From assembly GCA_947561715.1 (NCBI GenBank), contig OX387199.1, positions 16,125,001-16,189,000 of the forward strand: DNA of 64,000 nucleotides. The letters run 5' to 3'. Shown here one piece after another: positions 22,955 through 61,898 of this stretch (within the stretch, counting starts at the first letter, position 1; the number at the start of each line of letters is the position of its first letter). The DNA comes from Ascidia mentula (Eukaryota; Chordata; Ascidiacea; Phlebobranchia; Ascidiidae). Made by a program: the position numbers and the translations under genes. The notes under the pieces are model-generated. The model was not told the DNA's origin and made no database searches. It saw only the letters and a program-made list of their open reading frames with translations.

Positions 22955-23133
22955 AAGGTTGATTTAAATTTCATAGTTTAAACCAGCACCCACAACACAT
23001 GTATGAACGTCACAGCCTATTAGTTGGGTGCGTATCTTGTAACTCAAAACTTAAGTACAAGGCAGGAAGCAACTGTGAAAAACAGGTGGTATATCCTATT
23101 AGTTCTTGTAACCACACATTGTTATGTATGTTT

Positions 23134-23146
23134 AGGCTTACCTACA
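23134..23146 (+). promoter_or_regulatory. Splice acceptor just before PCIF1 ATG
   Basis: TGTTATGTATGTTTAG precedes GCTTACCTACA and the ATG at 23147. A T-rich AG acceptor 13 nt before the start codon suits either a 5' UTR intron or trans-splicing of a leader, which is common in Ciona. It is the main reason for rejecting the upstream in-frame ATG at 23024. Confidence 0.45.
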
Positions 23147-36059: not shown

Positions 36060-36655
36060 TTATCTTTTAGCTCAATCGAGTGAATATTACTTACAATAAC
36101 CCTCTAGCTCCATCACGCGAATGATAAAAAAGATAGTCCTTTAGCTCCGCCACATGGATGTTACTTTAAATAGACCTCTAGCTCCACCAAATGGGGGATG
36201 AAAATAGATTGTCCTCTAGCTCCACCACACGGATGTTACTTTAAATAGACCTCTAGCTCCATCACGCAGAGGATAAAAAAAGATAGTCCTCTAGCTCCAC
36301 CACACGGATGTTACGTTAAGTAGACCTCTAGCTCCACCAAATGGGGGATGAAAATAGATAGTCCTCTAGCTCCACCACACGGATGTTACTTTAAATAGAC
36401 CTCTAGCTCCATCACGCAGAGGATAAAAAAAGATAGTCCTCTAGCTCCACCACACGGATGTTACTTTAAATAGACCTCTAGCTCCATCACGCGGATGACA
36501 AAAAAGATAGTTCTTTAGCTCCACCACACGGATGTTACTTTAAATAGACCTCTATCTCCATCACGCTGAGGATAAAAAAGATTGTCTTCTAGTTCTACTA
36601 CACGGATGTTACTTTAAATAGATCTCCAGCTACACCACAGGGAGGATAAAAAAAG
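36060..36655. repeat. Minisatellite, ~75-bp dimeric unit
   Basis: About eight copies of a two-part unit. One half is CTCTAGCTCCACCACACGG plus ATGTTACTTTAAATAGAC; the other starts CTCTAGCTCCATCACGC and ends GGATAAAAAAAGATAGTC. The halves (about 40 and 35 bp) are related to each other. Diverged single units recur at 41875-41925 and 42456-42560 in the next array unit. Confidence 0.9.
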
Positions 36656-36659
36656 ATTA

Positions 36660-42871: not shown

Positions 42872-45800
42872 TCACTGAACCAGTTCGCCAACCCCTGATA
42901 TATGGCATAAAAGTTTATAAACTGCGAAGGCAAACAAGACAAACAAACACCCCAGTGAGAATTTTAACTCCATGTCCAATCGTTTCATGATGCAATTTTC
43001 TTTTATCATTTCTTGAACAAAGTTTCCTCGTTTATTCTTGTGAGGAAAGGGAACATCTGGAATGGGGAGACCGAGGAATTCACACAGCGGTTTCCAACCT
43101 TCTTTCACTTCATAAACCAAAAGCTGCTCCTTAGGAACTACCTAAACATAAACTTGTGTTTTTAAATGATGCAGTATTAAAGAACTAATTATCTGTTTTT
43201 TTGATTTATTTTCGAAAGCAAACTTTACTCAAAAATAAAAAAAAATTCTTTCCTTAGCATTTGTCTAGAATGCACAGACAAGGGAAGGATCCATAATAAA
43301 ACCACAAATGACTGGGCCCATAAGCGATTCATTTTTCAGTAATTACAGCCTGAAATCAGCATCTATCACCAAGTAACGAGGTGATTTAAAAACCCTCTAA
43401 AACATTTTCGAAGCACGTTAATATCTTGCCAGCAACAGCACATGCATATATGCTCGCTCAACCTGTAGGCGAGACTTATTTTAACAGAAATAAAGATATG
43501 CGTTCGAAATCAGTGGTTCAACAAACATCTTTTGCGTTCGATCACATAACTAGGAAAGATACAGTGGAATACATACATGTTGCACGTGCTTGCAGTGTCT
43601 CCGATACATTCTTCTTATCGACTCCTCATGTTTCGGGTAAATTTTGTACCATGGCCACCGATTGCATCCACTTATATTGACTTTTGCGCCGGCTAAAAGG
43701 TTGTCAGATGATTTATTCGTACATTTTCCCCTTTTTGATGGAAGTCACAATTATAAATACACATAAGAAAATGCACACAGTTTAACTGTTCCTTAAGGTT
43801 AACTACGGTTAAATGTGAATAATATAATATGACCTGCTTCTTCAAAGAATGTCCGAAAACGACGGCCGTTATAAGTAAGGAGGGCCATAAGTCGCATGAT
43901 AATGTCGTTATTTGCGTTGACAGTTTGATGATGAAAACTCTGGTACCAAGAATCCTCATCTCTTACGTTCAAAATCACCTGACGAAACAATAATCAGTAG
44001 TTAAAAATACCGTACGAGGTTAATGCAGTTTTTTCGTGTGCAATAATGTCTGTGCAATATTTTGTAACGTAGTTCTTTGAACCTGCCCGCTCCTGATTTT
44101 TAGGTGAACGATGTAGATGTTGTGAATGACAGCCAAAAAGCGAAGGAAATAACTGTTTTGTTTCGCCAGATTGGCCTCTTTTTTATTATTATTATATGCC
44201 AGGCAATATATATCTATTTTGTATGCTTTAAAAAAGCAAATCGAATTACGGGTGAAGTTGTGCAACTTCAATCAACCTTTTGTTCGATACGTTTGACTAC
44301 TGGCGGGAAAATAGTGAAAATAAAAAATCACTGAGTGATTTTCGTGGTGAACTGGGAGTAACCTCACACTTGTTCTTCAGTTTCCAAATGCCTTGTGGTT
44401 ACATACTGTAGATTTTCGCCTCCATTGTTTTGGTTATGGGTGCTGGGAGCACAATCATTATACTTACAAAATAATGCGTGCGTACGTCAATGCCTTTCTT
44501 GGTCATTAACGTGCTATTGTCTTGGTATGATGGCGGGCTTTCTTTCGTTAGTTTAGTTGTCGTGTTTTGGCCGTAGTGCACGTGCTCTGTTTAATCTGCT
44601 GCTTTTATAGATTCTATTTGAATAAGGAGACGGTTAACATAACGCTGTTTAAAATGAATGCACAGTTCGGTAAGTTTGTTGGTTTAGTTATGTGGCGCTG
44701 TTTGTTGGTAGGTCGTGTCATGTACCCAAACCTTGTGTTACAGAAAACCGCGTTATTTTGTGTGACGCGCGTCTTTTGATTTTGACAATAAGCTGTACGA
44801 GCACTGGCAGTTTGGCAAGCGCTGCCCAAGTGTGCGGCGTAACATAGCGTATATCTTTTTGACTGCTGAGGATGCTTGTTCCGGAAATTATTTCAACTCT
44901 TGTATTTTGAATTTTTACGTTCTAATGCAAACACATTTCGTTTGTAGTGTATGGTACATTACACAAACATCTCCTACAGCACATAAAATTCGAATGGTTA
45001 CACTTTATATTTACTCTCAGTACATCTTTTTTCCTATCTTCTCACACATGACTATCTTTGATGCCCGTGCGTGACCAAAACAATTAATTGCAATGGTTGA
45101 GTGTGACGTCATGATAACTTAGAAATTTTCTTTTTTGAATTTAAAGTCAATGGAGCTACAGAACAAACATAATGCGTCGAAATGCAAAGAACAACACCTT
45201 TTGGTAACTACGTTTACCCCTTACATATATCGGCGTAATTATTTTTAGGTTCGAAAAAGTTCTTCCCATGGGCTCTTTAAACACTTTTTAACGACTTGCT
45301 TTTCGTTTTGCACATTTGGTTTATCTGTCTTTATTTTCACCCCCTACCTCTTCAGTCACTTTTACTTACATATTTTCACGTTTATCTCCCAGCACTCTGT
45401 ATTTTTTCAGTTTTATTTGTTTCGCCCAACATTTCAAGTTTAGTTTTATACTCTGATTGCTCAGGATGCTACGCTAGAATACTCTAGTGGTAGTGGTGTG
45501 TGAAGGTGTATAAATGATCTAATAGGACAGCCAGACACACACCGCTGGCCACTTCGCACAGCATAGCACAGCACCTAATCGTTACGCATGGATGCTTTGT
45601 GTTAATACGGAGCATTTTAAGAAAGATAAGCTTTATGTGATCCAATTTACTTCAAATGGTGGTGCTCTTTTACAAGTCAATAAGAATCCCGTCATTTTTT
45701 CTTGCAAGCCAACAAAATATACAGATGGGTATTTATCGTTTAACGCTAGTCAAAAATGAGATTTGTAGTATTTTGTAAATGGTGGGTTATGGTTCTTACT

Positions 45801-46051
45801 TTTGCAGCTGGAAACGCGTCGAAAATTTCCTCCCAGAAATAGCAGCAAGGATTATCGACCACTGCGTCCACATTTTCATACATCCGTCTCATATCTTCTA
45901 TTCTAAAACCTTCTCTCACTTGTTTGATCCAATCATCACCAAGGTACCAGAAGTGTTCCATGACGTCATAAACTTCGTATCCAAGCAGCGTCAGAGCCGC
46001 ATTAATTGATTTTGTTCCAGTCTTCGGCAACCCAGCAGCTATCACCTTCAT
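42872..46051 (-). CDS. Sulfotransferase-like P-loop protein, copy 2
   Basis: Four exons in minus order: 46051-45800, 43978-43834, 43692-43577, 43141-42872. Exon lengths (252, 145, 116, 270 bp) equal those of copy 1; 260 residues, all frames intact. The P-loop is unchanged (GLPKTGTKS). Substitutions such as MKVIAAG for MKVMVVG, and a few in exon 3, show that the copies have diverged slightly at protein level. The C-terminal hydrophobic segment is kept. The first intron contains a 441-bp insertion bearing a spliced-leader match. It forms a tandem pair with copy 1 about 5 kb away. Confidence 0.85.
44406..44846. mobile_element. 441-bp insertion in sulfotransferase copy 2 intron
   Basis: The copy 1 intron reads TGGTCACATAGCGTATC near 40091, an empty site. 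In copy 2 this is split into TGGTTACATA (to 44405) and TAACATAGCGTAT (44840 on), leaving an imperfect 7-bp duplication. Inside are the spliced-leader match and, on the minus strand, an exon-like frame ending at a GTAAGT donor near 44465. No inverted termini. Confidence 0.6.
44611..44626 (+). other. Exact match to Ciona 16-nt spliced leader
   Basis: ATTCTATTTGAATAAG equals the Ciona intestinalis trans-spliced leader as I recall it. A genuine SL RNA gene would continue with a GT donor; here it continues GAGACGG, then an ATG at 44654, as in a spliced mRNA. It may be a retrocopied mRNA 5' end inside the insertion. Confidence 0.55.
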
Positions 46052-47564
46052 TTTTATTGCTTAGTAAAGCTAAAATCCGCGGAAACACACCACAGATTCT
46101 TAAAAGTTTTATGAAATGTTTTACGTTTAATGCGTTTAGTGCCAACTCAGTCCGTGCTTTTATTGGTCAAACAACTCTTTGACCTTCTCCTCTACGCTTT
46201 ATCTCCAATTCTCCAATATTCTCTTTCACTTGATTGGACTATATACCGTTCCGCTGCAACAATGTTAGATTACTTTTTGATGATAAAAAAACTTGTTTGC
46301 AGATTACAATTTTTTATTTTGCAGATAACGCTTTTCTCACCCTTGTTAAAATGTGAGAGAAATCAAAACATTACATACACCTGACATCTTCTGTACAATG
46401 AACCCAGAATCGTAAACTGTGTTTCTGACACAGGCCTGTTGTTTTCTAACCGTTACGCCTCATTGGACGATTACGAGATGTAACCTACTTAAGCAGAAAA
46501 AATTACGGTCTAATAGGCAGAGCGTTCACCAATCGCAGGCGTGTAAACAATAAAAAATACCGCGATGTACAAGAACATTGATATTGTAACTTGATAGAAT
46601 GATTTACGCGAAATTATGTTGTTTGTTCTGTTTAAGGTCAAAGTTACAGTGTAAATTTATTTCGTTGTTTCGAAAAGCGTAACCTACTATCATCGTTTTG
46701 AGGTTGCAGAAAACGCGTAAAAGGCAAACCCGTTGGTCAATGCCAACCTTCACAGGCGGGAGTCATTCGTGACACATTTTTTCTTGTTTTTCGTTATGTT
46801 GTAATTTTAACGTTTTTCGCGTATGGATCTTCCACATCCTGCAAATTCGGTCCATATCCTTCCAGTACTTCTGTCTGCTCATAGTGGTTAATTTACTCAC
46901 AACTTCACCTTTGACACGAGGCGAGGGTATCGCTGTGCAAATTTTGCGTGGCTAAGTTTTGCTATGTGCGACCGTAGAAGGCGCCTTACTTTCACTGATT
47001 TAGGATTGATAGTCGAAGAGCTCGTCCGTGCGCCTCAGGGCACTTGAAATTAAAAAAAAAGTTTTTCTTGAGACTGGCCACGTTTTTGCTTGCCGTACTT
47101 CTTGCGGCACAAACATTGTGACTGTAAACCAAAAACGTTTTGACATCACTTATTTGCAGAGCCCTACCTGCTCTGGACATTAGGAGCATGCAAAAGATTA
47201 GGTGCGTATATAATTCGCTACATATGAGAAAACCATATAATTTTCAGTGAAGGAAACAACCCAAAAAAGTTATATTTATTGACGAAATCGAGAATTGCAT
47301 TTGCAAGTTGCCACCTAATAACAAAACTATTGATTTAGAAAAGCAATTCAATAGCATGTTGTTTCTCCATTGCGCTTAAACATAAATACAATACAGGTTT
47401 GAGAGTATTGTAATCTTGCAAAGAAGTTTTGCTATAAGTTTCTTAGTCCATTGGTATAAACGAGTGGGGTTCACCAAGTATAACCTTAAAGGCCATGTAC
47501 GTATATGCAAACAATAATGAGATAAACTTTCTCAAACATCTTTAGGAAAAAAATGGTAAAGAAA
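46052..47564. other. Boundary between sulfotransferase and precursor arrays
   Basis: 46110-46240 is a partial copy of the sulfotransferase-unit flank (TGCCAACTCAGTCCGTG). 46380-47060 shows nothing assignable. From about 47080 the sequence becomes homologous to 47940-48150 and 52360-52520, the 5' part of the precursor repeat units. Confidence 0.5.
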
Positions 47565-47584
47565 GCACACGATGGCGCTAAAGG
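47565..47584 (+). promoter_or_regulatory. Conserved upstream element, degenerate copy 1
   Basis: GCACACGATGGCGCTAAAGG, exact. Only 47 nt from the ATG of the pseudogene, against 113-125 nt in intact genes. Confidence 0.55.
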
Positions 47585-47631
47585 GCTGTATGATAGCGTG
47601 ATCAAAGATTTTGGATATTGTGATTGAAAGC

Positions 47632-47918
47632 ATGGAAGGAAAGTTCGCAGTATAGTAATCTTACTACTTTTCTGTGGATTGTGCTTTTGTTCCCACGGAA
47701 AAAACGTTTGATGATAATCGGCTGACAGCGATTTTGAAAAACATTTAGTTCACTCGCAAGTATTTAATGATGATATGCAAATTCGACTAAACAGGGACTT
47801 CGAGTAACGTGGAACAGATTCAACAACAATGCAGAAAATCGACAAAAAAGGGATTCAATAATAATGCAGAAATAGGACCTCTGTTGGAATTACATAATTA
47901 CAAAATTGTGGAAAAATA
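47632..47918 (+). pseudogene. Secreted precursor, L type, degenerate
   Basis: The ATG is followed by a signal-peptide-like sequence (TGTGGATTGTGCTTTTGTTCCC) matching the intact genes, but an in-frame TAG occurs at codon 8 and frameshifts follow. Remnants of the L-type linker and of two NNAENRQKRDS-like units are visible across frames. It lies 1.1 kb before the large intact gene and carries its own upstream element. Confidence 0.75.
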
Positions 47919-48573
47919 CTAAACTATCCTTAAAACTTGAAATATAGTAGTTTGGCTTTTTTTGCACCGTGCTCAGCGCAGTGATGGCAGAAACTATTAA
48001 TCTTACCTGACTTTTGCCTGGAACATGGCTAGGATTTTGCCTTTCCGCCTTCATTGCGACACGGACTCTGTACCGGACCAAAAAACTCCAATAAACGTTT
48101 AGATATCACCTATTTGCAGAGTTCTACCAGCTCTTGGTAGTGGATATTGTAAATAAGTAATTTATGTGTGTAGCAAAATGTTACGTGCATATATAATTCG
48201 CTGAATATTAAAAGCACATTGAATTTTCAATAAAGGAAATAACCGGAGAAATTAACATTTATTGACGAAATCGAGACTTGCATTTACAGGTGGTCACCAA
48301 AAAATATTGTTATTTTAACAAAACTACATAATGCAATGTTGTTTCTCCTGCGTTAAAATGTAGATACAACACATGACTGTCAGTATTGTAAACGTGCTGA
48401 GAAGTTTTGCTATAAGTTCCAAAACCATTGATATTAATAAGTGAGATTTACCAAGTAAGACTAGAAAATCCATGTACATATATAATAAGAAAGGTGGTAA
48501 AAATTTTCTCAAACATCTTCAAGAAGAATATTGAAACTGGGCGCAGTAAAATAGAAACTGTATGGAAATGATT

Positions 48574-48593
48574 GCACACGATGGCGCTAAAGG
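48574..48593 (+). promoter_or_regulatory. Conserved upstream element of the 389-aa gene
   Basis: Exact GCACACGATGGCGCTAAAGG, ending 124 nt before the ATG at 48718. The interval contains further conserved blocks (CCCAGACCAAAATCACTTATAC and ACGAGTATTTGATATTG). Confidence 0.6.
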
Positions 48594-48717
48594 GTTGTAT
48601 GTGCATCACCTCCTTCAGTGTCAAGTCCCTTTTTTCTCCCAGACCAAAATCACTTATACTTGGAAACTTATGAAAACACGAGTATTTGATATTGTAAGTT
48701 GAGAGACTTCGAAAAAC

Positions 48718-49887
48718 ATGCAAGGGAAAGTTAGCATTACGTTAATTTTCCTAATTTTGTGTGGATTGTGTTTTTGTTCTCACGGAAATGATTTGAACGA
48801 TAATCGGCTAAAAACGATCTCGGAAAACATTGGAGGTCTTACACGATTATTCAATGATATTGTGGAAAATCGACAAAAAAGGGATTCGGATAGTGTGAGA
48901 CTTCCTCCACTAGGTTTCAATGATAATGCAGAAGATCGACAAAAAAGTGATTCGGATAGTGTGAGACCTCCTCAACTAGGTTTCAATGATAATGCAGAAG
49001 ATCGACAAAAAAGGGATTCGGATAGCGTGAGACCTCCTCCACTAGGTTTCAATGATAATGCAGAAGATCGACAAAAAAGGGATTCGGATAGTGTGAGACC
49101 TCCTCTACCAGGTTTCAATGATAATGCAGAAGATCGACAAAAAAGGGATTCGGATAGTGTGAGACATCCTCAACTAGGTTTCAATGATAATGCAGAAGAT
49201 CGACAAAAAAGGGATTCGGATAGTGTGAGACTTCCTCCACTAGGTTTCAATGATAATGCAGAAGATCGACAAAAAAGGGATTCGGATAGTGTGAGACCTC
49301 CTCCACTAGGTTTCAATGATAATGCAGAAGATCGACAAAAAAGGGATTCGGATAGTGTGAGACCTCCTCCACTAGGTTTCAATGATAATGCAGAAGATCG
49401 ACAAAAAAGGGATTCGGATAGTGTGAGACCTCCTCTACCAGGTTTCAATGATAATGCAGAAGATCGACAAAAAAGCGATTCGGATAGTGTGAGACCTCCT
49501 CTACCAGGTTTCAATGATAATGCAGAAGATCGACAAAAAAGGGATTCGGATAGTGTGAGACCTCCTCTACCAGGTTTCAATGATAATGCAGAAGATCGAC
49601 AAAAAAGGGATTCGGATAGTGTGAGACCTCCTCTACTAGGTTTCAATGATAATGCAGAAGATCGACAAAAAAGGGATTCGGATATGATGGGACCTCCTCT
49701 GCCAGGATTCAATGATAAAGCAGAAAATCGACAAAAAAGGGATTCGGATATGATGGGACCTCCTCTACCAGGATTCAATGATAAAGCAGAAAATCGACAA
49801 AAAAGAGATTCGGATATGGTGGGACCTCCATCCGGATTCAACGAAAACGCAGGAATATCCCCTCCGCGGGGATTACGGAAGGCCTAA
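48718..49887 (+). CDS. Multi-unit secreted peptide precursor (L type, 15 units)
   Basis: Intronless 389-residue ORF. Residues 1-23 form a signal peptide (VSITLIFLILCGLCFCSHG). A ~30-residue linker (NDLNDNRLKTISENIGG...) ends at the first RQKR. Then come 15 units of about 22 residues, typically DSDSVRPPPLGFNDNAEDRQ plus KR. Nearly every unit ends in RQKR, a furin-type RXKR site, so the secretory pathway should release a series of ~20-residue peptides. Two units end in RQKS, predicting uncut double-length peptides. The last three units switch to DSDMMG or DSDMVG, and the protein ends in the array-wide cap GISPPRGLRKA. The near-identical 66-bp DNA repeats point to unequal crossing over. Few Cys outside the signal peptide, so not a disulfide-rich peptide. 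Function unknown: neuropeptide-like, antimicrobial or gamete-related are all possible. Confidence 0.8.
   Translation: MQGKVSITLIFLILCGLCFCSHGNDLNDNRLKTISENIGGLTRLFNDIVENRQKRDSDSVRLPPLGFNDNAEDRQKSDSDSVRPPQLGFNDNAEDRQKRDSDSVRPPPLGFNDNAEDRQKRDSDSVRPPLPGFNDNAEDRQKRDSDSVRHPQLGFNDNAEDRQKRDSDSVRLPPLGFNDNAEDRQKRDSDSVRPPPLGFNDNAEDRQKRDSDSVRPPPLGFNDNAEDRQKRDSDSVRPPLPGFNDNAEDRQKSDSDSVRPPLPGFNDNAEDRQKRDSDSVRPPLPGFNDNAEDRQKRDSDSVRPPLLGFNDNAEDRQKRDSDMMGPPLPGFNDKAENRQKRDSDMMGPPLPGFNDKAENRQKRDSDMVGPPSGFNENAGISPPRGLRKA
48880..49800 (+). repeat. 66-bp coding tandem repeat
   Basis: About 14 head-to-tail copies of a 66-bp unit (GATTCGGATAGTGTGAGACC ... AATGCAGAAGATCGACAAAA). Internal copies are almost identical; the end copies are the most divergent, as expected for homogenisation by unequal exchange. 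Confidence 0.9.
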
Positions 49888-52800
49888 AATTGTAGAAAAA
49901 TACTAAACGCTTCTTATAAGGTGTAGATTTTAACTAACAAAAAAAGAAATGTAATCGCTTGGCTTTCTATATACCATATTTTAGCCTACCCACGTTTTTT
50001 TAGTTAGATTTTATTACCGCAAATATTTATCAGAATATTGTTATGAAGACAATCATTTCAAAAACTTCCACATTTGAAATCTAACGGCTGTAAATATCCT
50101 AATCTTTGGAAAAAGTGGAAATGATGATTATAATTTTGATGCCGCAACTTGCAAATTTCCGGAAGCACGACGCTTGTCTGGCTTAGCTGTAAAAAAACAA
50201 ATACAAAACCAAACACAAAAGTGTTGTATGAACTTTGCTGATTTATTTTACATATTTCAGATCCGCTTATGGATCTAGTGGGGTTGTAGGTGAGGACTGG
50301 AATAAATGTACTGAACATTGTTGGCCTCCAAATATCAAAATTTAAAAAAATATAATCGCATTGGAAGTAATTAAATAACCTAAAGTTGAAATGGACGTAC
50401 AACAGAAAATCCTGTTCCCAGCCAAAGGCCCCACCATGTCATGGTCCAATGCATAACTACAAAGCTGTCTAAACCAATTTCGTACGGAACACTGCTGAGT
50501 GAACGCCAAGTCAGCAAAAACAAACTTGACACACCTCAAAATACAACTTTGGCAGCTATGTAGTCGATTTTTGGATGGGCAAGCAAGCGGAACTCTTTCG
50601 TGTGATCTCGGACAAAGAACACTTAACGCTCAAGTTCTTTCAATCTTCTGGTAATGTAAGTTTTTCCCGAAAACTAAGCGAAAAAAGTATGAGTTGTGCT
50701 TTGCTTTATATACCAATGGCATGTCAATTCATTTTTTGCAATTTGTTGATCTTTAACTGACCTTTAGATGCAACACAGTAAAAAGTAGGTACGCAACATT
50801 TTAGCCGCCATCTCTACGAGCAACCAACCGGAAATATTTTATTGATCTTAGGTAAAAATTATTTGTGCCATGCCTGACGGTTTAATAATTATATTTCATA
50901 AATTGTTGTGTTACAAAAATTTGTGGTACGATAACGGCTTTATATTTCTATTTTTGTGTAATTATCATGATCAGAATTATATATAAGCACAAAAAATTTG
51001 TATATATATAAAAGACTTATAAGGACCTCTGTACAAATAGAAAGCAATGGAAAGCATTTAACCCAGCGCCACATTTGGCTCCACAAGCTTTTCGTAGAGA
51101 CTCGCGTGCAACGTTGTCACGCTCAAGTTCACCACACAATGTTAATACATCCAGGCCGGCGGACAAAACCTTAACCCCAGCACAAGTCGCTTTCTTCATA
51201 AAAACTTTTCGCCTTCTGACTTATTGGTCGCCCATTAATAGGTTTGTATTAGTCCATATTGTGTGTATGTTCTTCTTTATAAGTTTCGAGTCTATTTTCT
51301 ACTAATTTTACGTTTTTATAAAAATATAAATTTTATTGTTTGCTCAAACGAGAAAACTGCCGTTAGTAACTCGTGCTAAAATTTTGGACAGCATAGAATT
51401 TGTTTTGTTTTTTGCAATATGCGCAATTTACAAATGAAATATGTTTTTCCCGCACCAATGTTGGAAGCCAGGTTCGACAGGAAAAAAAAAACAAATCAGG
51501 TTTTCCATCTGTTATATGGGTCGGGCGCTTGGCCGCAAAACCCGCCCTGTTGTGAAAGTTTGGTCAAAGTCGCAAATAAATGTGCTCTCGAGCTCGCTCT
51601 TGCGTTCAACTTCAACTGGTTCAAAGGTAACGTCAGATTGACACAACAGATTATAAAAACGTGCTCCACAGTAAACTTTGCGAAACTTTAGGGCTCATAA
51701 CAACATTTGAAAAGATGTATGGGGTAATAACTACTTTTATGCAAAAAGTTCTCAATATAATTCATGACGTTAGTCAGCTTCATAATGATAAGCTTGACAT
51801 TAGAGTGGTTAATCAGAGAACTTAGAGTGCTGGTTATTAGTCTCAAAAAAGAATGTTAGACATTTGTGTACAAAAAAAAAACACATTGACTGTAACAATT
51901 AGTAACGGATTTGCCTCTAGCTGTTGTGGTATGCTGTTAATGTTAGCTTCCTACCAGTCAAGCTTAGGCCTATTGATAATATATATTCTGCTATACCTAA
52001 AATACTTATGAATTAAGACACGACAGAAATTTGTACGTAGACTGTGAAATGCATTAAAGAAAAGCAGTCGTCCGCGTGGTGGTAATATTGCCTGCAGCCT
52101 GCACAAGCGTAACAGGTATGTCTTCAATAAGCGTGTTAAGCAGTTGGTTCACCTCCAGTTTGGGTGACCTTAAAAGCAGGTAAGCATATGTATATGCAGA
52201 TCCTTGACAAGTGAGGAATTTAGCAGTCTGACCATCAGGCTCATACTTTTCCGTTCATAAATTTCATGCTTGTTATGTGTCTGAGCATAACATCATCAAT
52301 TATGGCGACAGTTTGTCGTAGGCCCCCTCACAAACTTTTCGCACCAGGCCTTACTATGCCAGTGAGGTTTTATGGATTCATGTTTTACGTTAAAAAAAAC
52401 CTGGCCAGGTTTTTGACCGCCTGTCTTAATTGCGACACGGACTCTGAACCTGTGAAAAAAACTCCCATATCTTCCATAAACGTTTTGATATCACTTATCT
52501 ATTCTACCAGCTCTGGGTCGTGGACATTATAAATATGTATGATTCGTCGGTAGAAAAGTGTTAGGAGAGCATCTACTTAGTTGAATATCAAAAGCCCACA
52601 AAGTTATCAATAATGGAAATAACAGGAGAGATTTACATTTACTGTTGTAATCGAGACTTGCATTTGCAAGTTGCCGCCTAAGAATAAAGCTATTCTTTTA
52701 ACGAACAATTAAATGCCATGTCGATTCTCGTGCGTTGTCAGTATTGTAAAGGTGCTGAGAAGTTCTGCTGTAAGTTTCCAAAACTATTGATATTAATATG

Positions 52801-52933
52801 TGAGATTTACCACGTAAAACTACAAAAAGCAATATCTGTATGCAATAAGAGATGCGGAAAAAAGTTTCTCAAACAGCTTCAAGAAGATTATTGGAATTGG
52901 GCGTGGTAAAATAGAAACAGTATGGTAATGATA
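49888..52933. repeat. 3' flank and spacer of precursor unit 1
   Basis: Conserved with the flanks after 53501, 58206 and 61898: TTCAGATCCGCTTATGGATC near 50260, a block with a minus-strand open frame (50405-50590), and CACAAGCTTTTCGTAGAGAC near 51080. 52020-52330 (minus) resembles 55600-55880. From about 52360 the 5' part of the next unit begins. No intact gene seen. Confidence 0.55.
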
Positions 52934-52953
52934 GCACACGATGGCGCTAAAGG
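52934..52953 (+). promoter_or_regulatory. Conserved upstream element of the 140-aa gene
   Basis: Exact GCACACGATGGCGCTAAAGG, ending 125 nt before the ATG at 53079. Confidence 0.6.
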
Positions 52954-53078
52954 ATTGCATCTTCTTCACTTCCAATATTATGAAGTCCCTTTTTCTCACA
53001 GACCAAAATCACCTGCTTGAAGTCGTATGAAAACAGGAGTATTTGATATAGAGGTCTAAAAATCTAGATTCGAAAAGC

Positions 53079-53501
53079 ATGGAAAGGAAAGTTCACGTTG
53101 CCTTAATTTTCTTGATTTTGTGTGGAATGTGCTTTTGTTCTCACGGAAAAGCGTTCAACGGTAAAATGGATTCAGATATTGTCCGACATCCAGCCGGATT
53201 CAACGATAATACAGAAAATCGACAAAAAAGAGATTTGGATATTTTGTTACCTCCAGTCGGATTCAACGATAATGCAGAAAATCGACTAAAAAGAGATTTG
53301 GATATTTTGTTACCTCCAAACGGATTCAACGATAATGCAGAAGATCGACGAAAAAGGGATTTGGATATGCTGAGACCACCACCAGGATTCAACGATAATG
53401 CAGAAGATCGACAAAAAAGGAGTTCGAATATGGTGGCACCTCCAATGGGATTCAACGAATACGCAGGAATAGCGCCTCCGCGGGGATTACGCAAGGACTA
53501 A
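53079..53501 (+). CDS. Secreted peptide precursor (S type, 5 units)
   Basis: Intronless, 140 residues. Signal peptide (VHVALIFLILCGMCFCSHG), then directly KAFNGKM and the first unit, with no L-type linker. Five units follow: DSDIVRHPAGFNDNTENRQ, two DLDILLPP.. units, DLDMLRPPPGFNDNAEDRQ, and a terminal SSNMVAPPMGFNEYA with the cap GIAPPRGLRKD. The four sites are RQKR, RLKR, RRKR and RQKR, all RXKR. Units differ more here than in the 389-residue gene, so this copy has not been homogenised. The GFNDNAE core and Pro-Pro are kept in the first four units. Confidence 0.8.
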   Translation: MERKVHVALIFLILCGMCFCSHGKAFNGKMDSDIVRHPAGFNDNTENRQKRDLDILLPPVGFNDNAENRLKRDLDILLPPNGFNDNAEDRRKRDLDMLRPPPGFNDNAEDRQKRSSNMVAPPMGFNEYAGIAPPRGLRKD

Positions 53502-56500
53502 AATTGTGAAAAAATAGTAAACTCTTCTTGAAATGTGTAGATTTTAACTAACTCAAATGAAATGTAGTAGCTTGTCTTTCTATATTCCGTGTTTAGGCCT
53601 GCCGACGTTATTCAAAGTAACTATTTATTACTGCAAAAATTTCTCATAATATTGTTACAAAGAAACAAATTTTAAAATCAAACCTTCAAAATGTAACGAC
53701 ATGAAATAATTAATCTTTGAAAAAAGTAAAAATGACGATTTAAATTGTGACTTTGCAACTTGCAAATTTCCGTAAACACGACGCTCATCTGGCTTAGCTG
53801 CAAAAAAATACAAAACCAAGCACAAAAGTTTTGTGTGAACTTTCTGATTTATTGTACACATTTCAGATCCGCTTGTGGATCTAGTGGGATATTAGTTGAG
53901 GAATGAAACAGATGTAGATACTGAATGTTGGTCTCCAAATCACGAAATTTATACAAATTGATAAGCGGATTGAAAGTAGTTACATAACCTAATGTTAAGA
54001 TTTACGAACAACAGAATATCCTCGTCACAACCAAACGAGAGGTTTGTCCCATCATGTCATGGTCCAATGCACATCCACAAAGCTGCCTAACCCAATTTCG
54101 TGCGGAACACTGCTGAGTGAACGCCAAGTCACCAAAACCAAACTTGACACTCCTCAAATTACAACTTCGGCAGCTTTGTATCCGATTTTTGAATGGGCAG
54201 GCAAGCGGAACGCTTTTTCGTAAAGGACATTCATCGGTTAAATATTTCAACTGTATCTGTAGTCACCACGCAGAGTTATTGTAGATTTTCCTAAATATGT
54301 GCTTTTTTGCTTGATATACTTTTGATATGCCAATAAATTATTGTGCAATTTTTGATATCATTGAACGACTGAGTAGGTTTAAATTTGTTGCAACAGCGGG
54401 CACGAATCCCGGTCAGGTTTTCTTCTTTGTACACGGGTCGGGCGCTTGGCCAATGCTGCCAGTCACCCCCCCTGATTTTTTTTTAGTGTCGATGTGTCGC
54501 AAATGAATGTGCTGTCGAGTTCGCTCTTGCGGTCAAATTCAAATGCCACGAACATAACGTCAGATTAACACAATAGATTATGAAAGCCAATTGCACAGTG
54601 GATTTCGCGGAACTTCAGAGTTCCAGAAAAACCTCCTGAAAAGCTTCATGGGCTTATAGTAGCTAGTTTGATGCAAAAATATCCCAATATGATTTAAGCC
54701 TTTGTGCAGCTGACGCATTTGCAACGAATTCATAATTAACAAATCTAATCGATGCATATTGTTATGACACGAAAGCCAAGTTGGTCGTTGTGTTGTGAGT
54801 AATTTCCAGTATATCGTCGTTGGCCCAAGTCTGAACATGTCAACGCCAGTGTGCTTTGCCTTCAATGTATGTTGTACAACGTTGTTTCAAACTGGCGCGG
54901 CCATTTCCTCTCTGACCATAGTTTGCGTTTGCGCTGTGCCAGACATTCTGTTCTACACTATTTCGGTTGCCTCGTAAACCGCGTATGTAAAAAGGATTGA
55001 AGTTAGCATTGCCTGCCTTGTGTCTTCATGTTGGCACTCGGCAAGAATAAAATTGTATGTACAAATTGGAAGATTGATTAGTTCGAAAGGAGATTGCCAA
55101 ATTTTAGTCCTAGGACTCATGCCTTTTAAAGGTCAAGGACCTTAAACTCTAGTGTGTGAGATTCACCTAGGAAGTCTATGCCTAAAGTAACCGCTAACAT
55201 ACGTTGCACATTCGTCAACGGTTGTAAGCAACACTCACGACAGCAATAAATTTTATTGTTGCGCATTTTTGACCATGTTTGTGGCAAATGCAAGTGATGT
55301 AAAAGTGTCGTTCCGTCGTTTTGCTGCGTTCTTCCAAACTTGGCCCATGTCAAGTCAATCATTGTATTAGGTGACCACATTTTCGATGGTGAAGTTAGTG
55401 AGGTTTGAAAACAATACGCTTGACGTTATCATAGTTCTTAGTGTGGTTATCAATCGCATTTTTGTAGAAGATTTTAACAAAGAATGCAGAAATTTTTTGG
55501 TATAATGAAACCATATCGACAATAAATAAACGATTGCCTCTGAATGTTGTTGTATGCTGTTAACGTTAACTTTTTCCTAGTCAAGCATATTGATAATATA
55601 CAATCTGCTTTATCTGCACATCTCATGAATTAAGGTACGGCCGAAATTTTCCTCTATAAATGTAGACAGGCAGTAGCCCGCGTAATGGTAACATGACCTA
55701 CGGTTCACCTCCAGTTTGTGTATCCTAAAAATCAGGCTTGCAAATGCAGATCCTTGACAGGTAAGGAATTTAGCAATCGGACCTGATATGCGTTCATATT
55801 TCCCGTTTACAAGTTTCATACTAGTTACGTGTCTGAGCATAGCCTCAGTGTGTTTTATAACTTCATGGTTCAAGTCCAATTTCTTCATTCGTTATATTTC
55901 TCTTTTCATAATGTTGTTGTACGATGTCTCGTTGAGAATGACCAGTACCCCATCTTTGTCAGATTTACATTATACGATGTTATTTCGTGTCACCATCCGT
56001 AAAATCTTACGTAGACTGCATCTCAGGAAGGAGATTATGAGGGAAATTGTTTTGTTTGGGAAGCATTTGCTGCTTCTGCTTGTTTATTGAGTACCTTGGT
56101 AAATATCGATTCCGTGTAGTTCTTGATTTTCAAATACCGATTATGTTAAAGCGCGAAACGTCTGGAATTGAAAGTTTTTCTTTTCTTTTGCACTGAGTGA
56201 AGAAACCCGTCTTGTTGAAGTACAGAGTAATGTTGTTATGCTACTGAACCTTTCGATTTGCCAATAATCGGTCAGAAATAGCCTTTGGTGTGTGACGTCA
56301 CAGCTTGCCCAGACATTTGATGAAACGTTATTTGGGGGTTTTCTAGATTTGAATTCGCTACAGCGATAAAGGTTAATGATCATTGATCGCCGCTATTTTC
56401 AGTGCAGTTTTCAATCTCATTAAGTTGCCATAGCCTAACCACATGCACTTTAATCCTGGCCGGAATTTCGAAACGAATTGTCGCATGTTATTGTTACAAC

Positions 56501-56906
56501 TGTATTACAGTTTTTTCAACCAATGCGTCACGACCTTAAGTTTGGTCGCCTGAGAATTCACTTGGAATGCCAGTAATTGTAATTAAAGCATAACAGACCG
56601 ATTTATGTTTTTTTAGGGCCATAATACTCATTGAGAGCTGCAGATAGGTGGTTTGTCCATATTGGTTTGTACCCAGTTGGGTTGACCGGAAAGTACTACG
56701 AAATGGAAATCTGTTTACCTGCTAGTGTAACTGCTATCGCAATACCACAGTCAACAGCTGAAATAATAATAGCTTGCAGGTCAAAACCGTGTATACATCC
56801 TGTCTGCAGCTGTAGATTTATGTTTTCTAATGCAGCATAAATTAGGGTTTATCTTCAAAAATTTGGAAGATGACTGCAGCAAAATAGAATCGGTATGGTA
56901 AGGAAA
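53502..56906. repeat. 3' flank and spacer of precursor unit 2
   Basis: Repeats the flank of unit 1 (TTCAGATCCGCTTGTGGATC near 53865; the minus open frame at 54030-54250; GGGTCGGGCGCTTGGCC near 54438). Minus-strand frames at 55126-55380 and 55610-55888 are open but unrecognised; the latter has a decayed partner at 52.1-52.3 kb. A dispersed-repeat copy lies at 56670-56815. Confidence 0.55.
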
Positions 56907-56926
56907 GCACAAGATGGCGCTAAAGG
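56907..56926 (+). promoter_or_regulatory. Conserved upstream element, degenerate copy 2
   Basis: GCACAAGATGGCGCTAAAGG, one mismatch; ends 161 nt before the pseudogene ATG. Confidence 0.5.
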
Positions 56927-57087
56927 GTTGTATCAACTTAACTTCGATCATTTATGAAGTCCTTTTTTCCCCAGGTCTGGGAGAAAAAAAGACTTTATGA
57001 ATGATCGACGTTTGTACTTGGAAACGTATATGAAAACACGAATATTCGATAATATGTTTTGAGAGTTTGGATATTGTGATTAAAAGC

Positions 57088-57410
57088 ATGGAAGTTCGCA
57101 ATATGTTACTTTTACTTATTATGTGTGGAATATTCTTTTGTTCCCACGGAAAAGAGTTTGATGATAAACGGGTGAAAACGATTTTGAAAACATTAGATTT
57201 CTTTCGCGAGAATTCAATGATCATGCGAAAATTCGACAAAAAAGAGATTCGGACTTTGTGAGACCTCAACACGGATTGAACAATAACCCAGAAAATCAAC
57301 AAAAAAGTGATTCGGATATTTTGTTACCTCCCTTTCTGTGACAATGTAAAATATAGAATAAACAGAGATTGGGATAGTGTGAAACCTCAATGATAATCCA
57401 GAAATAGACC
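57088..57410 (+). pseudogene. Secreted precursor, L type, frameshifted
   Basis: The signal peptide (MLLLLIMCGIFFCSHG) and the L-type linker start (KEFDDKRVKTILK) are intact, but the frame shifts within the linker and stops at 57261. In another frame the unit pattern continues (FNDHAKIRQKRDSDFVRP, then NPENQQKSDSDILLPP) to a second stop near 57341. Relics of a further unit and of the cap follow. Non-functional as a multi-unit precursor, although a 57-residue secreted product could still be made. Confidence 0.7.
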
Positions 57411-57834
57411 ATCCGACAGGATTAGGCAGGAAATTTGTGAATATCAACTAACCTTTCTTTAAAACTAAATTTGTGAAAATCAACTAACCTTTTTTTAAAA
57501 CGCGTAAATTGTTTTTATAACAGACAGGATATAGTAATTTAGCTTCCTTTGCAATGTGTTTAGAGCAATGATGTGCAATATTTGCCAAGTTACATTTTGC
57601 TTTCATAAACGTTTCTTAATTACTGTTGTCTTAGTGAAATGCATATCTACAAAGCTGACTTACCCAATTAAGTTTCCGAAACCATTGATTAATATGTGAG
57701 AAGTATAAATCACCATGTAAAACTAGTACAGCCATATTTGTATGTAATAAGAGAAGTGGTTATTTTCTCTATAAGCGCTTCAAGAAGAATATTGAAATTG
57801 GGCATAGTAAAGTAGAAACAGTATGTTAATGTTA

Positions 57835-57854
57835 GCACACGATGGCGCTACAGG
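57835..57854 (+). promoter_or_regulatory. Conserved upstream element of the 75-aa gene
   Basis: GCACACGATGGCGCTACAGG, one mismatch; ends 124 nt before the ATG at 57979. Confidence 0.55.
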
Positions 57855-57978
57855 ATTGTATCCACTTAATTTCCGTCTCAAAAATACCTTTTTCTCCCCG
57901 AACAAAACACTTGTACTTGGGAACGTACGAAAACACGAATTTTAGATCTTGTTAGTTGAGAGTCAGGATTTAAACAGC

Positions 57979-58206
57979 ATGGAAATGAAAGTACACATTA
58001 CGTTACTTTTCTTGATTTTGCGTGGATTGTGCTTTTGTTCTCACGGAAAATCATTCAACGATAAAAGGGATTCGGATATGGTGGCACCTCCACCAGGAAT
58101 CAACGATAATGCAGAAAATCGACAAAAAAGAGATTCGGATATGGTGGCACCTCCACCAGGATTCAACGCAGGAATATCCCCTCCGCAGGGATTACGGAAG
58201 GACTAA
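57979..58206 (+). CDS. Secreted peptide precursor (S type, 2 units)
   Basis: Intronless, 75 residues; an in-frame ATG at 57949 is possible, but the 57979 start matches the other family members. Signal peptide (VHITLLFLILRGLCFCSHG), KSFNDKR, one full unit (DSDMVAPPPGINDNAENRQ plus KR) and a terminal unit DSDMVAPPPGFNAGI joined to PPQGLRKD. This is the minimal form of the family: one RQKR site plus a KR dibasic after the signal peptide. The 5' leader GAGAGTCAGGATTTAAACAGC is nearly identical to that of the 94-residue gene. Confidence 0.8.
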   Translation: MEMKVHITLLFLILRGLCFCSHGKSFNDKRDSDMVAPPPGINDNAENRQKRDSDMVAPPPGFNAGISPPQGLRKD

Positions 58207-59683
58207 AATTGTGGAAAAATACCAAACTCTCCGAATAACGTGTACATTTTAACTAACCTAAAAAGAAATGTAGTAGCTTGGCTTTCTATATACCGTATTT
58301 AGGCCTACTTACGGTTTTAAGTTTTTTTTAGATTTGATTACTGCAAACATTTCGTAGAATGTTGTTATGAAAACAAAAATTATAAAACTTCAACCTTCAA
58401 AATCTAACGAAAGTTAATTTCCTAATCTTTGAAAATGTGAAAATTACGATTTTAATTTTGATGTCGCAAGCACTACGCTTATCTGCCTAAGCTGTAAAAA
58501 GCAAATACAAAACCAAACACAAAAGTTTTGTGTGAACTTTTCTGATTTCACAAATTTCAGATCCGCTTATAGATCTAGTAGGGCAGTAGGTGAGGATTGG
58601 AACAGTTGAACTGAACATTGTTGGTCTCCAAATCACAAAATTTATAAAAATTTATAAGCGCATTGGAAGTACATAAATAACTTAAAGTTAAGATTTACGA
58701 ACAACGGAAAATCCTCGTCCCAACCAAACGAGAGGTTTGTCTCGTCGTGGTCCAATGCCCATCCACATAGCTGTCTAACCGTATTTCGTGCGGAACGCTG
58801 CTCAGTGTAGGCCAAGTCAGCAAAAACAAAAATGACGCACCTCCAAAAGCAACTTTGTAGCCTATTTTTGGATGGGCAGTCAAGCGGAACTCTTTTGCGT
58901 GATCTTGGACAAAGAACACTTAACGTTTACGTTCTTTCACTGTTCTGGCAATGTAAGTTTTCCTGAAGATTAAGCCAAAAGAGTATGAGTTGTACCCTTT
59001 TTTGCTTTACATACCAATAGCATGCCAATTCATATTTGCAATTTGTTAAACTTAAATGACTTTTAGATGCGACACAGTAAAAACCAAGCGGAAAACTTTT
59101 ATCGATCTCAGGTAAAAATTATATATGCCTGCCTGACGGTTTGATAATTATATTTCCAACGCTGTTGTTTTACAAAGATTTGTGGCACGATAACGACTTT
59201 ATATTTGTTTTTTTGTGTAATTACCATGATTGGAATTATATGTAAGCGCAAAAAATCTGTACATATGTAAGGCTAATCAGGACTTCTGTACAAATAGACA
59301 ACAATGGAAGGAGTTTAAACATAAGTTATTAAAATCCTAAGGCCACATCTGACTTCACTTGTTTTTCGTAGAGACTCGCGGGCAACGTTGTCACGCTTAC
59401 ATTCACCACAAAATGTTAGTTCAACTAGACCGGCGGACGAAACCTTAACCACACAACTCGCTTTCATCGTCCGTCAACGGGCTTTGTAATTGTTCATATC
59501 ATGTGTGCGTTTTTTTAATTAGTTATGAGTCCATTTCCACCTAATTTTATAAGTTTTTTTTACTATATTATTCCCTGTGGAGAAAAAAGCACTTTATAAG
59601 TGATCGATGGTAATACTTGGGAACTTATGAAAACACTAATATTCGATATTGTGTTTTAAGAGTTTGGATATTGTGATTAAAAG
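58207..59683. repeat. 3' flank of precursor unit 4
   Basis: Same order of blocks as after the other genes: TTCAGATCCGCTTATAGATC near 58557, the minus open-frame block at 58700-58900, then GTAGAGACTCGCGGGCAACG near 59368. No independent gene seen. Confidence 0.55.
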
Positions 59684-59850
59684 CATGCAAAGAAAAGTTA
59701 CTTTTACTTATTTTGTATGGATTGTGCTTTTGTTCGCACGGAAAATAGTTTAACGATATTGGGCTAAAAACGATTTTGAAGAACATTGGTGTTCTTTCGA
59801 TATAATTCAATGATAATGTAGCAATTCGACAAAAAATAGATTCTCTCTGT
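59684..59850 (+). pseudogene. Secreted precursor, L type, degenerate
   Basis: An ATG is followed by signal-peptide DNA (TGGATTGTGCTTTTGTTCGC) with a deletion that shifts frame near codon 6. L-type linker remnants (GGGCTAAAAACGATTTTGAA) and one GACAAAAAATAGATTC unit remnant follow. No upstream element was found, unlike the other copies. Confidence 0.7.
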
Positions 59851-61480
59851 TTGCCGTGTTAATGTCAACCGATGTTTTTCATAGTAACATTTTTTCACTG
59901 CAAACATTTCTCATAATATTGTTATGAAGCCAAAATTGTTAAACTTTAAACTTTGAAATCTAACGACAGTAAAAATCATTAAGTTCTACACAGCATTTGT
60001 GTTGAGTTAAGGCCGTAAATAGCATGCGAAAACGGACCGATAGATTACGCACGTAAACGGAACGAATTTTCGTCCCGAACCATCCGTTAAAAGGCACTGT
60101 ACACAGTATCCGTTATCGTTCGAATTTACGCTTTTGTGCGCAGGTCGCTGGGAAACCAAATCCAACTGCTGTGTGTGTAAACAGTTCCAAAACTATCATT
60201 TTAATTGTTCTCCATGACATGTTGGTCAACTATTGAAAAGAAAAAATCCTTAGAATGTTTGATAGCTACGAAATGCTTCTTATTTTGTGATCAAATGTAT
60301 TTGTTGTACTGAGAAAAAGGAAAAGACACATACAAACTGCCACACACTGATAACACCAGGATATTTAGCTTGAATATACCATTATCACATATTTGAATCT
60401 GGAGGTAAACTGACTATTAAATTGGTAGAACGTGCTTTTCACAAATGCTAACCACCTGCACATGGTTGCAAGTCATATGATTCAGAACCATGCTGCATTC
60501 TTGGTGATCACAGGAAGTGTCACTAACTGTATGATTGTTTTCCATGTATTAAAAACTTGACAAATCAAAATTACATTTAATAGTCTGTTCTTCTGACACA
60601 CTAAAAACGTAACTTTATTGACCGACGTTTCGCCTGTTATTCAACAAGGCTTCCTCAGGGTACTAGTCCAGAACACAACAGTTGTGTTTCGTCGGTTAAT
60701 GAAGTTACGTTTTTATTGTGCCTGAAGAACAGACTATTAAATTACCACATCCCTGGCAGCAACAGAAACATTATATTTCAAAATTACATGTTTGTAAAAC
60801 CAATTGCTATCTTTGCCGTATTGTAGACATTGAGACTCACAATAATAGTAAATATTAAACTGTCAGTTTTGCAACAATATAAATAATATAATATGATCAT
60901 AAAAAAGAAGCACTGCAAATGGAGGACAATTATTCACGGAAAGCAAAACAAATTGTAGAAAAAACTTATATCTACTTGAGTTGACAAATACCTATTTCTC
61001 ATGATTTTTTATAATTATATTTCATGAACACATTGCAATTGCTGTATTTAATGCTTATTCCAATTGTCCCAATGCATCAATGTGTTTGTTGTCTACGTAT
61101 GCAAGCTGGCAGTTGTTCTTTTGTCATGACAAAAATGTTTCCGGATCATTTGAACTGTCATGAAAATTCCTTGCCTATGATGTAAAATACCCTAAGCCAA
61201 CACACGACCATAAGCACATTATTAACCAACTAATGCATTGTAATTGTCCATTTAATAGCGGTAGCCTTCGAATTAAAACTTTTCAAGTCAAATTTTATAC
61301 TTTCTGGTTCGTCTGTATTGGCGGATCCACGTTAACCGAAAGGCACCACAATATGGAAGCCTACCCTCTGTCTGCAGCTCTTAATACATGTTTACTTTTA
61401 TCACATAAAACTGTTTTTTCGACAAAAAATGTAAAAATTTGACTGGTTTACAGCAAAGTAGAATCGTTATGGAAAGTTAA
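59851..61480. other. Spacer between precursor units
   Basis: Less related to the array than other spacers. Contains the palindromic element at 60576-60741 and a dispersed-repeat fragment at 61325-61382. No gene seen; probably a non-array insertion. Confidence 0.45.
60576..60741. mobile_element. Palindromic MITE
   Basis: Inverted arms TTTAATAGTCTGTTCTTC ... AAAAACGTAACTTTATTGAC and GTTAATGAAGTTACGTTTTT ... GAAGAACAGACTATTAAA. The ~60-bp centre holds GACGTTTCGCCTG and GGCTTCCTCAGGG. The whole can fold into a long hairpin. Confidence 0.75.
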
Positions 61481-61500
61481 GCACACGATGGCGCTAAAGG
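61481..61500 (+). promoter_or_regulatory. Conserved upstream element of the 94-aa gene
   Basis: Exact GCACACGATGGCGCTAAAGG, ending 113 nt before the ATG at 61614; the downstream CCCAGACCAAAATCACTTATAC block is also kept. Confidence 0.6.
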
Positions 61501-61613
61501 TTTTCCGTTATTATAAAGCCCTTTTTCCTCCCAGACCAAAATCACTTATACTTTGGAACGTATGAAAGCACGAGTATTTGATATTGCAAGTTGAGAGTCA
61601 GGATTTAAACAGC

Positions 61614-61898
61614 ATGGAAAGTAGAGTAGACATTACGTTACTTTTCATGATATTGTGTGGATTGTGCTTTCGTTCTCACGGAAAAGCGTTCAACGATAAA
61701 AGGGATTCGGATATGGTGAGACCTCCATTGGGATTCAAGGATAATGCAGAAAATCGACAAAAAAGAGATTCGGATATGGTGGGACCTCCAATGGGATTCA
61801 AGGATAATGCAGAAACTCGACTAAAAAGGGATTCGAATATGGTGGGACCTCCAAATGGAAGATCCTCTTCGAGGGGATTACGGAAGGACTACAATTAA
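61614..61898 (+). CDS. Secreted peptide precursor (S type, 3 units)
   Basis: Intronless, 94 residues. Signal peptide (VDITLLFMILCGLCFRSHG), KAFNDKR, then DSDMVRPPLGFKDNAENRQ-KR, DSDMVGPPMGFKDNAETRL-KR and the terminal DSNMVGPPNG, followed by a changed cap SSSRGLRKDYN. Asn in the GFNDN core is replaced by Lys (GFKDN) in both complete units, a shift unique to this paralogue. The cap extension by YN comes from loss of the usual stop position. Confidence 0.8.
   Translation: MESRVDITLLFMILCGLCFRSHGKAFNDKRDSDMVRPPLGFKDNAENRQKRDSDMVGPPMGFKDNAETRLKRDSNMVGPPNGRSSSRGLRKDYN

What the first reader, a model, noticed from the sequence alone, without database searches (positions are those of the whole stretch)
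47565..61898. Tandem family of multi-unit, furin-processed secreted peptide precursors
Seven family members in 14 kb share a signal peptide (CGLCFCSHG), a ~21-22-residue unit of the form DSDxVxPPxGFNDNAEN/DRQ bounded by RXKR, and a C-terminal GIxPPRGLRKD cap. Four are intact, with 15, 5, 2 and 3 units. This is the architecture of repeated peptide or pheromone precursors, yet I recognise no known family. It is the best candidate here for an undescribed signalling or defence system.
Basis: partly seen in the sequence, partly recalled or inferred. Interest (0 to 1): 0.9.

Follow-up and report, generated by a model that had tools for sequence, protein, structure and literature searches.

The report
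Sea squirt many-copy secreted peptide genes
A sea squirt genome holds a large gene family, so far without a known relative, whose secreted proteins look built to be cut into many near-identical 20-residue peptides (in one gene, 226 of them); what the peptides do is not yet known.

Summary
The seven window members sit at one end of a ~380 kb tandem cluster, of which I read part: 30 intact intronless genes plus broken ones. Divergent relatives lie at 15.57-15.58 and 17.80-17.88 Mb of the same chromosome and at 7.46 Mb of another. The last encodes one 5014-residue precursor: signal peptide plus 226 head-to-tail 22-residue units. Five subfamilies with regular arrays share the unit tail (G/R)F-x4-E(N/D)-RQKR while the head changes. 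An upstream element is exact in 18 of 19 intact genes checked. Signal peptides differ more, per site, at silent than at replacement positions, so the protein was probably under selection. Inside arrays units drift at the neutral rate, and one giant array is frame-shifted yet kept expanding. Best reading: concatemer precursors cut by furin-type convertases into high doses of small secreted peptides, more likely effector (defence or barrier) than hormone. Expression and function were not testable here.

The parts
47565..47584 (+). upstream 20-mer element (GCACACGATGGCGCTAAAGG) before broken member 1
   Evidence: genome-wide counts
47632..47900 (+). broken member 1: signal peptide (FCGLCFCSHGK) recognisable, several in-frame stops
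48574..48593 (+). upstream 20-mer element, ~140 bp before the ATG
48718..49887 (+). intact precursor gene 1: signal peptide, linker, 15 DSD..GFNDNAEDRQKR units (last carries the cap), 389 aa, one open frame
   Evidence: tandem array 66 bp x 14.8 at 95%
52934..52953 (+). upstream 20-mer element
53079..53501 (+). intact precursor gene 2: 5 units, 140 aa
56907..56926 (+). upstream 20-mer element (1 mismatch) before broken member 2
57088..57420 (+). broken member 2 (signal peptide MEVRNMLLLLIMCGIFFCSHGK, then stops)
57835..57854 (+). upstream 20-mer element (1 mismatch)
57979..58206 (+). intact precursor gene 3: 2 units, 75 aa (missed by the strict test, added by hand)
59685..59860 (+). broken member 3; no upstream element found before it
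61481..61500 (+). upstream 20-mer element
61614..61898 (+). intact precursor gene 4: 3 units, degenerate cap, 94 aa

Best explanation
These are genes for concatemer precursors. An intronless gene makes a protein with a signal peptide and 2 to 226 head-to-tail copies of a ~20-residue acidic, proline/asparagine-rich peptide. Most copies end in RQKR or a variant. A furin-type convertase in the secretory route cuts after RXKR and a carboxypeptidase trims the KR, so one transcript yields a large molar dose of peptides such as DSDSVRPPLPGFNDNAEDRQ. Copy number per gene grows by expansion of the array and gene number by tandem duplication. I think the products are high-dose extracellular effector peptides (defence or barrier, made by haemocytes or epithelia) rather than hormones. 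SHOWN: architecture, gene and unit counts, long-term conservation of the signal peptide and, less firmly, of the unit tail, and a shared upstream element. INFERRED: transcription, cleavage, secretion, effector role (architecture about 0.8, effector role about 0.45).
For: 30 intact genes were read in the 16.17-16.55 Mb cluster (29 by a strict test, one added). The 5014-aa precursor has 226 units, all exactly 22 aa, with no stop or indel. Signal peptides (last 18 codons) of six divergent loci: pS 0.636, pN 0.219; those six against four cluster genes: 0.643 and 0.327. Third-position excess in the signal peptides of five loci: p 0.0095. Unit tails of five subfamilies, anchoring KR left out: pS 0.569, pN 0.161. 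The core GATGGCGCTA is exact 117-141 bp upstream in 18 of 19 intact genes with 400 bp of upstream read. All 53 genome matches to the 20-mer with at most 2 mismatches lie in the cluster. Units lack Gly before KR, so no amidation signal, and in the cluster lack cysteine by inspection. Precedent: Drosophila Baramicin is cut at RXRR into tandem 23-residue peptides with net charge +1.1 to -0.9 and helps against fungi (PMC8423362 passages).
Against: No transcript or peptide was seen; none could be tested here. Third-position excess of the unit tails alone is not significant (p 0.13). Single signal-peptide pairs range widely (pN/pS 0.05 to 0.70; one close pair has pS 0 and pN 0.047). Within arrays, silent and replacement changes occur at the neutral ratio (73 of 281 silent, 70.0 expected), so single units are not visibly constrained. 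Predicted peptides are anionic (-0.5 to -4.2 for nine typical units), unlike classical antimicrobials. 75 of the 226 units of the giant read CQKR, which loses the furin site.
Confidence: 0.45

Rival explanations
1. Reproductive peptides: egg, follicle or sperm-acting peptides, multiplied to give a strong, species-specific signal in sea water, as sperm-activating peptides of echinoderm egg jelly do.
For: Asterosap is an egg-jelly peptide acting on a sperm guanylyl cyclase (PMC3528131 passages).
Against: No expression data; no direct comparison with named sperm-activating peptides was made; no array-level excess of replacement changes except in the giant (0 silent of 16, p 0.011).
Confidence: 0.2
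2. Bulk or structural product: the precursor supplies a matrix, tunic or metal-binding acidic repeat, and cutting only breaks a polymer into monomers.
For: Very high copy number; low-complexity acidic P/N-rich units; no confident fold predicted for gene 2 (mean pLDDT 52.7, pTM 0.16, alignment of 4); vanadium accumulation in the haemolymph of the species is cited in PMC11109543.
Against: RXKR sites are kept, with exceptions, across five subfamilies whose heads have changed; units seldom hold Tyr or Cys that could cross-link (by inspection).
Confidence: 0.15
3. Neuropeptide or hormone precursors.
For: Multi-copy precursors with basic cleavage sites are a usual form; cnidarian precursors with 19 and 21 copies are described as very high copy number (PMC9545775 passages).
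Against: No amidation signal; furin-type RXKR sites rather than plain KR; at least 30 genes and 226 copies exceed the examples that I saw; unit sequences within arrays drift freely.
Confidence: 0.1
4. Mostly non-functional coding minisatellites spread by segmental duplication, with at most a few working genes.
For: Neutral silent/replacement ratio inside arrays; a giant array at 16.3395-16.351 Mb has 114 of 180 unit spacings at 62 bp, which breaks the frame, and has still expanded; a second forward frame of the 226-unit array is almost as open as the coding one (4984 codons), so frame length alone proves little; 3 of 7 window members are broken.
Against: Signal peptide, and less firmly unit tail, conserved by amino acid across loci whose silent sites are far diverged; upstream element kept; 30 intact genes.
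Confidence: 0.1

Closest known systems
Drosophila Baramicin A (PMC8423362, passages)
   Same: Tandem ~23-residue related peptides between furin sites, a distinct C-terminal peptide; peptides not strongly cationic.
   Different: Only three IM10-like peptides named; also carries a long Gly-rich IM24 domain; its VXRPXRTV motif is not seen here; insect.
Apidaecin and ant hymenoptaecin multipeptide precursors (PMC3415428, passages)
   Same: Head-to-tail peptide copies with dibasic cutting sites; the hymenoptaecin copies lie in one exon, proposed to amplify the response.
   Different: EAEP spacers and RR sites; hymenoptaecin domains of about 100 aa, seven in the example; not compared directly, but no hit in the general searches.
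Cnidarian Antho-RFamide preprohormones (PMC9545775, passages)
   Same: High-copy peptide precursors; acidic residues precede each peptide.
   Different: Amidated RFamide peptides, 19 to 21 copies; here no amidation signal and up to 226 copies.
Echinoderm sperm-activating peptides (asterosap; PMC3528131, passages)
   Same: Secreted peptides of a free-spawning deuterostome; that their precursors are multi-copy is recalled, not seen in a call.
   Different: Asterosap is a 34-residue peptide with a disulphide ring; units here mostly lack cysteine.
Ciona PEP51 and CiEMa (PMC10570924 passages; PMC10888236 part 1 of 6)
   Same: Ascidian peptides described as Ciona-specific.
   Different: CiEMa is a single 14-residue amide, PEP51 a 51-residue peptide; no likeness to the units on inspection.

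Membership tests
Furin/convertase-processed multipeptide precursor (general kind) | N-terminal signal peptide | tested here: met
   Hydrophobic N-terminus in the 30 intact cluster genes and six divergent loci, by pattern and inspection; no signal-peptide predictor was on hand
Furin/convertase-processed multipeptide precursor (general kind) | Repeated peptide units separated by RXKR or similar | tested here: met
   exceptions RQKS (2 of 15 in gene 1) and CQKR (75 of 226 in the giant)
Furin/convertase-processed multipeptide precursor (general kind) | Free peptides detected in tissue | not testable with these tools
   needs peptidomics
Baramicin | IM10-like motif VXRPXRTV and IM24 domain | tested here: not met
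   motif not seen on inspection of the units; no Pfam family above cut-off in the four window genes; no direct sequence comparison
Baramicin / insect AMP precursors | Induction by infection | not testable with these tools
   no expression data
Amidated neuropeptide precursors | Gly before the dibasic site | tested here: not met
   units end RQKR or a variant, no Gly
Echinoderm sperm-activating peptides | Sequence relation or disulphide ring | tested here: inconclusive
   no relative in the general searches; units lack paired Cys; no direct comparison made
Ciona PEP51 / CiEMa | Sequence similarity | tested here: not met
   the CiEMa sequence and a 20-residue PEP51 fragment differ on inspection

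The most novel reading that the evidence does not exclude
A lineage-specific secreted peptide repertoire built on a constant tail ((G/R)F-x4-E(N/D)-RQKR) and a replaceable head, multiplied both by gene duplication (dozens of genes) and by array growth (up to 226 peptides per protein), so that a chordate makes many related peptides in very high dose for chemical defence or species-specific communication.
Probability: 0.35. Interest if true: 0.85.

Novelty: new variant of a known kind. Interest (0 to 1): 0.62.

Why it matters
A precursor with 226 peptide copies is about ten times the 21 copies that a review of cnidarian peptides gives as an example of very high copy number (PMC9545775 passages), and it lies in a tunicate, a close relative of vertebrates. 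Intact, broken and frame-shifted arrays in one genome let one watch how peptide precursors gain copies, and separate the mutational process (arrays expand even when the frame is lost) from selection (signal peptide and tail are kept). If expressed, it is a ready source of a new class of secreted peptides.

Tried and rejected
Known family by profile: Pfam on the four window genes gave DUF1179 at E 0.11, 12.9 bits against a cut-off of 25. NCBIfam on six proteins gave CsgA (E 2e-5, 24.4 bits, cut-off 160) and an alginate lyase (E 7e-6, 25.1 bits, cut-off 429), which I take as repeat or composition effects. The only hit of the first protein search (P0001, E 0.19) shares VRPPLPG-like stretches with an otherwise different protein. 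No solved structure; no relative in viral contigs (126 pattern stretches, none confirmed) or prokaryote genome contigs (62, none confirmed). The AlphaFold model of gene 2 is not confident and was not used for a fold search.

Selection for diversity inside arrays: suggested by the giant alone (0 silent of 16 distinct changes, p 0.011), not borne out by all 18 arrays tested (73 silent of 281, 70.0 expected). At least three near-identical gene pairs are counted twice there; without one of each pair it is 66 of 249 against about 62 (my arithmetic). Frame length as evidence was rejected: a second forward frame of the giant is open over 4984 codons.

Upstream element as a marker for other peptide clusters: six 3-mismatch copies at 10.02-10.06 Mb; the one read precedes a sequence that I recognise by eye as glycogen-branching-enzyme-like (not searched). 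That the element resembles a CTCF or YY1 site is from memory only and untested.

Ten paper searches listed nothing on this family by title or abstract; three of them listed no paper, one search was for the genome note, and only open-licence papers are held.

Limits: protein searches scored only the 7997 and 7989 candidates sharing most words, so a relative could be missed. The units compared were picked by a pattern that includes PP, G and KR, which biases them; I rely, where only KR was used and then dropped. In one search two signal peptides (17.8569 and 17.8406 Mb) are one residue longer and were aligned from their right end, which adds differences of both kinds. Not every match to the upstream element was checked to precede a family gene.
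Full report
WHAT IS THERE. The window lies at C52:16,125,001-16,189,000 of a 195.8 Mb genome in 79 contigs. C52 is 23,172,987 bases and C67 is 22,722,200; chromosomes 3 and 4 of Ascidia mentula kaAscMent1.1 are 23.17 and 22.72 Mb (PMC11109543, part 1 of 3 of the text read). [quoted passage not shown] The seven members in the window are real: four open from signal peptide to cap, three broken. Units are 21-22 residues and most end in RXKR, with two RQKS exceptions in the first gene.

THE FAMILY IS MUCH LARGER. DNA and protein searches of the own genome place relatives all along C52:16.17-16.55 Mb. I read 16.150-16.3525 Mb completely (and the first stretch), then 17 targeted stretches and L004 up to 16.551 Mb. 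In these, 29 genes passed a strict test of signal peptide plus cap, and one window gene that the test missed was added: 30 intact, 75 to 389 residues, each in one open frame. Thirty is a lower bound, since the rest of the cluster was not read and the search lists are capped. A simple cut at dibasic sites gives 136 internal units, 77 of them distinct, from the 29. Other members are broken by stops or frameshifts. A block of about 15 kb recurs 205.4 kb away; spot checks show 4 differences in 3004 bases. One array at 16.3395-16.351 Mb has 180 unit spacings, of which 114 are 62 bp and 62 are 63 bp, so the frame is lost after the first units; yet the 62-bp unit itself has been amplified.

THE GIANT AND OTHER DIVERGENT RELATIVES. 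At C67:7,459,626-7,474,670 a single frame of 5014 codons encodes a signal peptide (MESKSNKALIVLLLFGLWLCSNG), a short linker, 226 units of exactly 22 residues (consensus SEENVLPPLPGFNNNMENRQKR) and an 8-residue end. Blocks of up to 62 units repeat identically at a distance of 61 units, so the array grew recently by large steps, and the exact count should be confirmed with long reads. Searches with the divergent signal peptides add members at C52:15.573-15.579 Mb and 17.797-17.880 Mb, including open frames of 1624 and 753 codons (the weakest matches have E up to 1). I read one of these and parts of four more. Units there are NLGNVPPPPGFTSDVENRQKR, SKENAPPANVGFNSYMENRQKR and SLEHHSDLQDLPGGRFNGNVENRQKR; the parts read at 15.579 and 17.8406 Mb have irregular units. 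In the five subfamilies with regular arrays the head of the unit is replaced while the tail, (G/R)F-x4-E(N/D)-RQKR, stays. A degenerate pattern for ENRQKR has 411 matches in the genome against 28 for the reversed control; in its capped list one match is on C2 and the rest are on C52 in the cluster.

IS IT UNDER SELECTION? Across six divergent loci the last 18 signal-peptide codons have pS 0.636 and pN 0.219 (ratio 0.34), and against four cluster genes 0.643 and 0.327 (ratio 0.51). Single pairs range from 0.05 to 0.70, and one close pair (17.8427 and 15.579 Mb) has no silent and 0.047 replacement difference. For five loci the excess of third-position differences has p 0.0095 by column shuffling. 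Among 17 distinct signal peptides of the cluster dN/dS is 0.47. Consensus unit tails of five subfamilies, with the anchoring KR left out, have pS 0.569 and pN 0.161, but on ten codons the third-position excess is not significant (p 0.13). Inside arrays the picture is different: 73 of 281 distinct changes are silent where 70.0 are expected (18 arrays). In the giant alone all 16 distinct changes alter the protein (p 0.011), one of them R to C at the cutting site in 75 of 226 units. So the protein type appears to be kept over long times, while individual units within an array are expendable. Frame length is weak evidence: a second frame of the giant is open for 4984 codons.

REGULATION. A 20-mer, GCACACGATGGCGCTAAAGG, precedes the genes of the cluster: its core GATGGCGCTA is exact at 117-141 bp before the ATG in 18 of 19 intact genes with 400 bp of upstream read. 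Of 71 genome matches with up to 3 mismatches (reversed control 2), 56 lie in the cluster, among them all 53 with at most 2 mismatches; one more lies ~196 bp before the ATG of the 17.8745 Mb member, and 14 lie elsewhere. The 17.8427 Mb gene has a 6-mismatch version at -136; the C67 gene has none better than 9 mismatches in 600 bp. Part of this is shared descent of duplicated DNA: two of the three broken window members have the element too, while silent sites in the cluster genes differ by ~0.25-0.28.

IS IT KNOWN? No Pfam, NCBIfam or PDB family above cut-off; no relative among 5.8 billion proteins with one gene or with an eight-sequence alignment; none in viral or prokaryote contigs. As a control, the PCIF1 gene at 23,024-24,691 of the same window found Phallusia mammillata at 86% identity and also Ciona, Clavelina and Styela, so ascidian proteins are in that collection. 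Ten paper searches listed nothing on this family.

HOW IT MOST LIKELY WORKS. The architecture is that of a concatemer precursor: secretion signal, near-identical peptides in a row, convertase sites between them. RXKR favours furin, which works in most secreting cells, over the plain KR sites and Gly-amide ends of many neuropeptides (established knowledge). One transcript would then give a large dose of ~20-residue acidic peptides (net charge -0.5 to -4.2 for nine typical units). Dose amplification, many genes, high turnover and no detected relative in other ascidians fit extracellular effector peptides best, and Baramicin (passages) and hymenoptaecin (passages) show that insects use this design for defence, in the first case with peptides that are not strongly cationic. 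Egg or sperm peptides are the main rival. None of the steps from transcription onward is shown here.

VERDICT. Observation confirmed, interpretation partly supported, family larger and stranger than reported; a new, extreme variant of the multipeptide precursor, with function open.

Noticed in passing
window 23024-24691 (+): Open frame for a PCIF1-like protein (PF12237), 86% identical to a Phallusia mammillata protein over 90% of the query; no separate WW domain listed for it.
   Followed up: partly
window 45746-46060 (-) and 33201-33608 (-): A Sulfotransfer_4 exon and a protein kinase exon, ordinary neighbouring genes.
   Followed up: partly
window 36087-36657: 75-bp tandem array, 7.7 copies, 85% matches, of unknown nature.
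   Followed up: no
L054 (C52:10018100-10019300) and C52:10.019-10.063 Mb: Six copies, spaced in multiples of about 5.47 kb, of a 3-mismatch version of the upstream element; the one read precedes a sequence that looks by eye like glycogen branching enzyme.
   Followed up: partly
C52:16.3395-16.351 Mb (L027, L028, L032): A frame-shifted 62-bp unit has been amplified to most of a ~180-unit array: array growth does not need an open frame. Could serve as a neutral control.
   Followed up: partly
C52:16227475-16242193 and 16432888-16447585: Block duplicated 205.4 kb apart with 4 differences in 3004 compared bases; recent duplication or a retained haplotype.
   Followed up: partly
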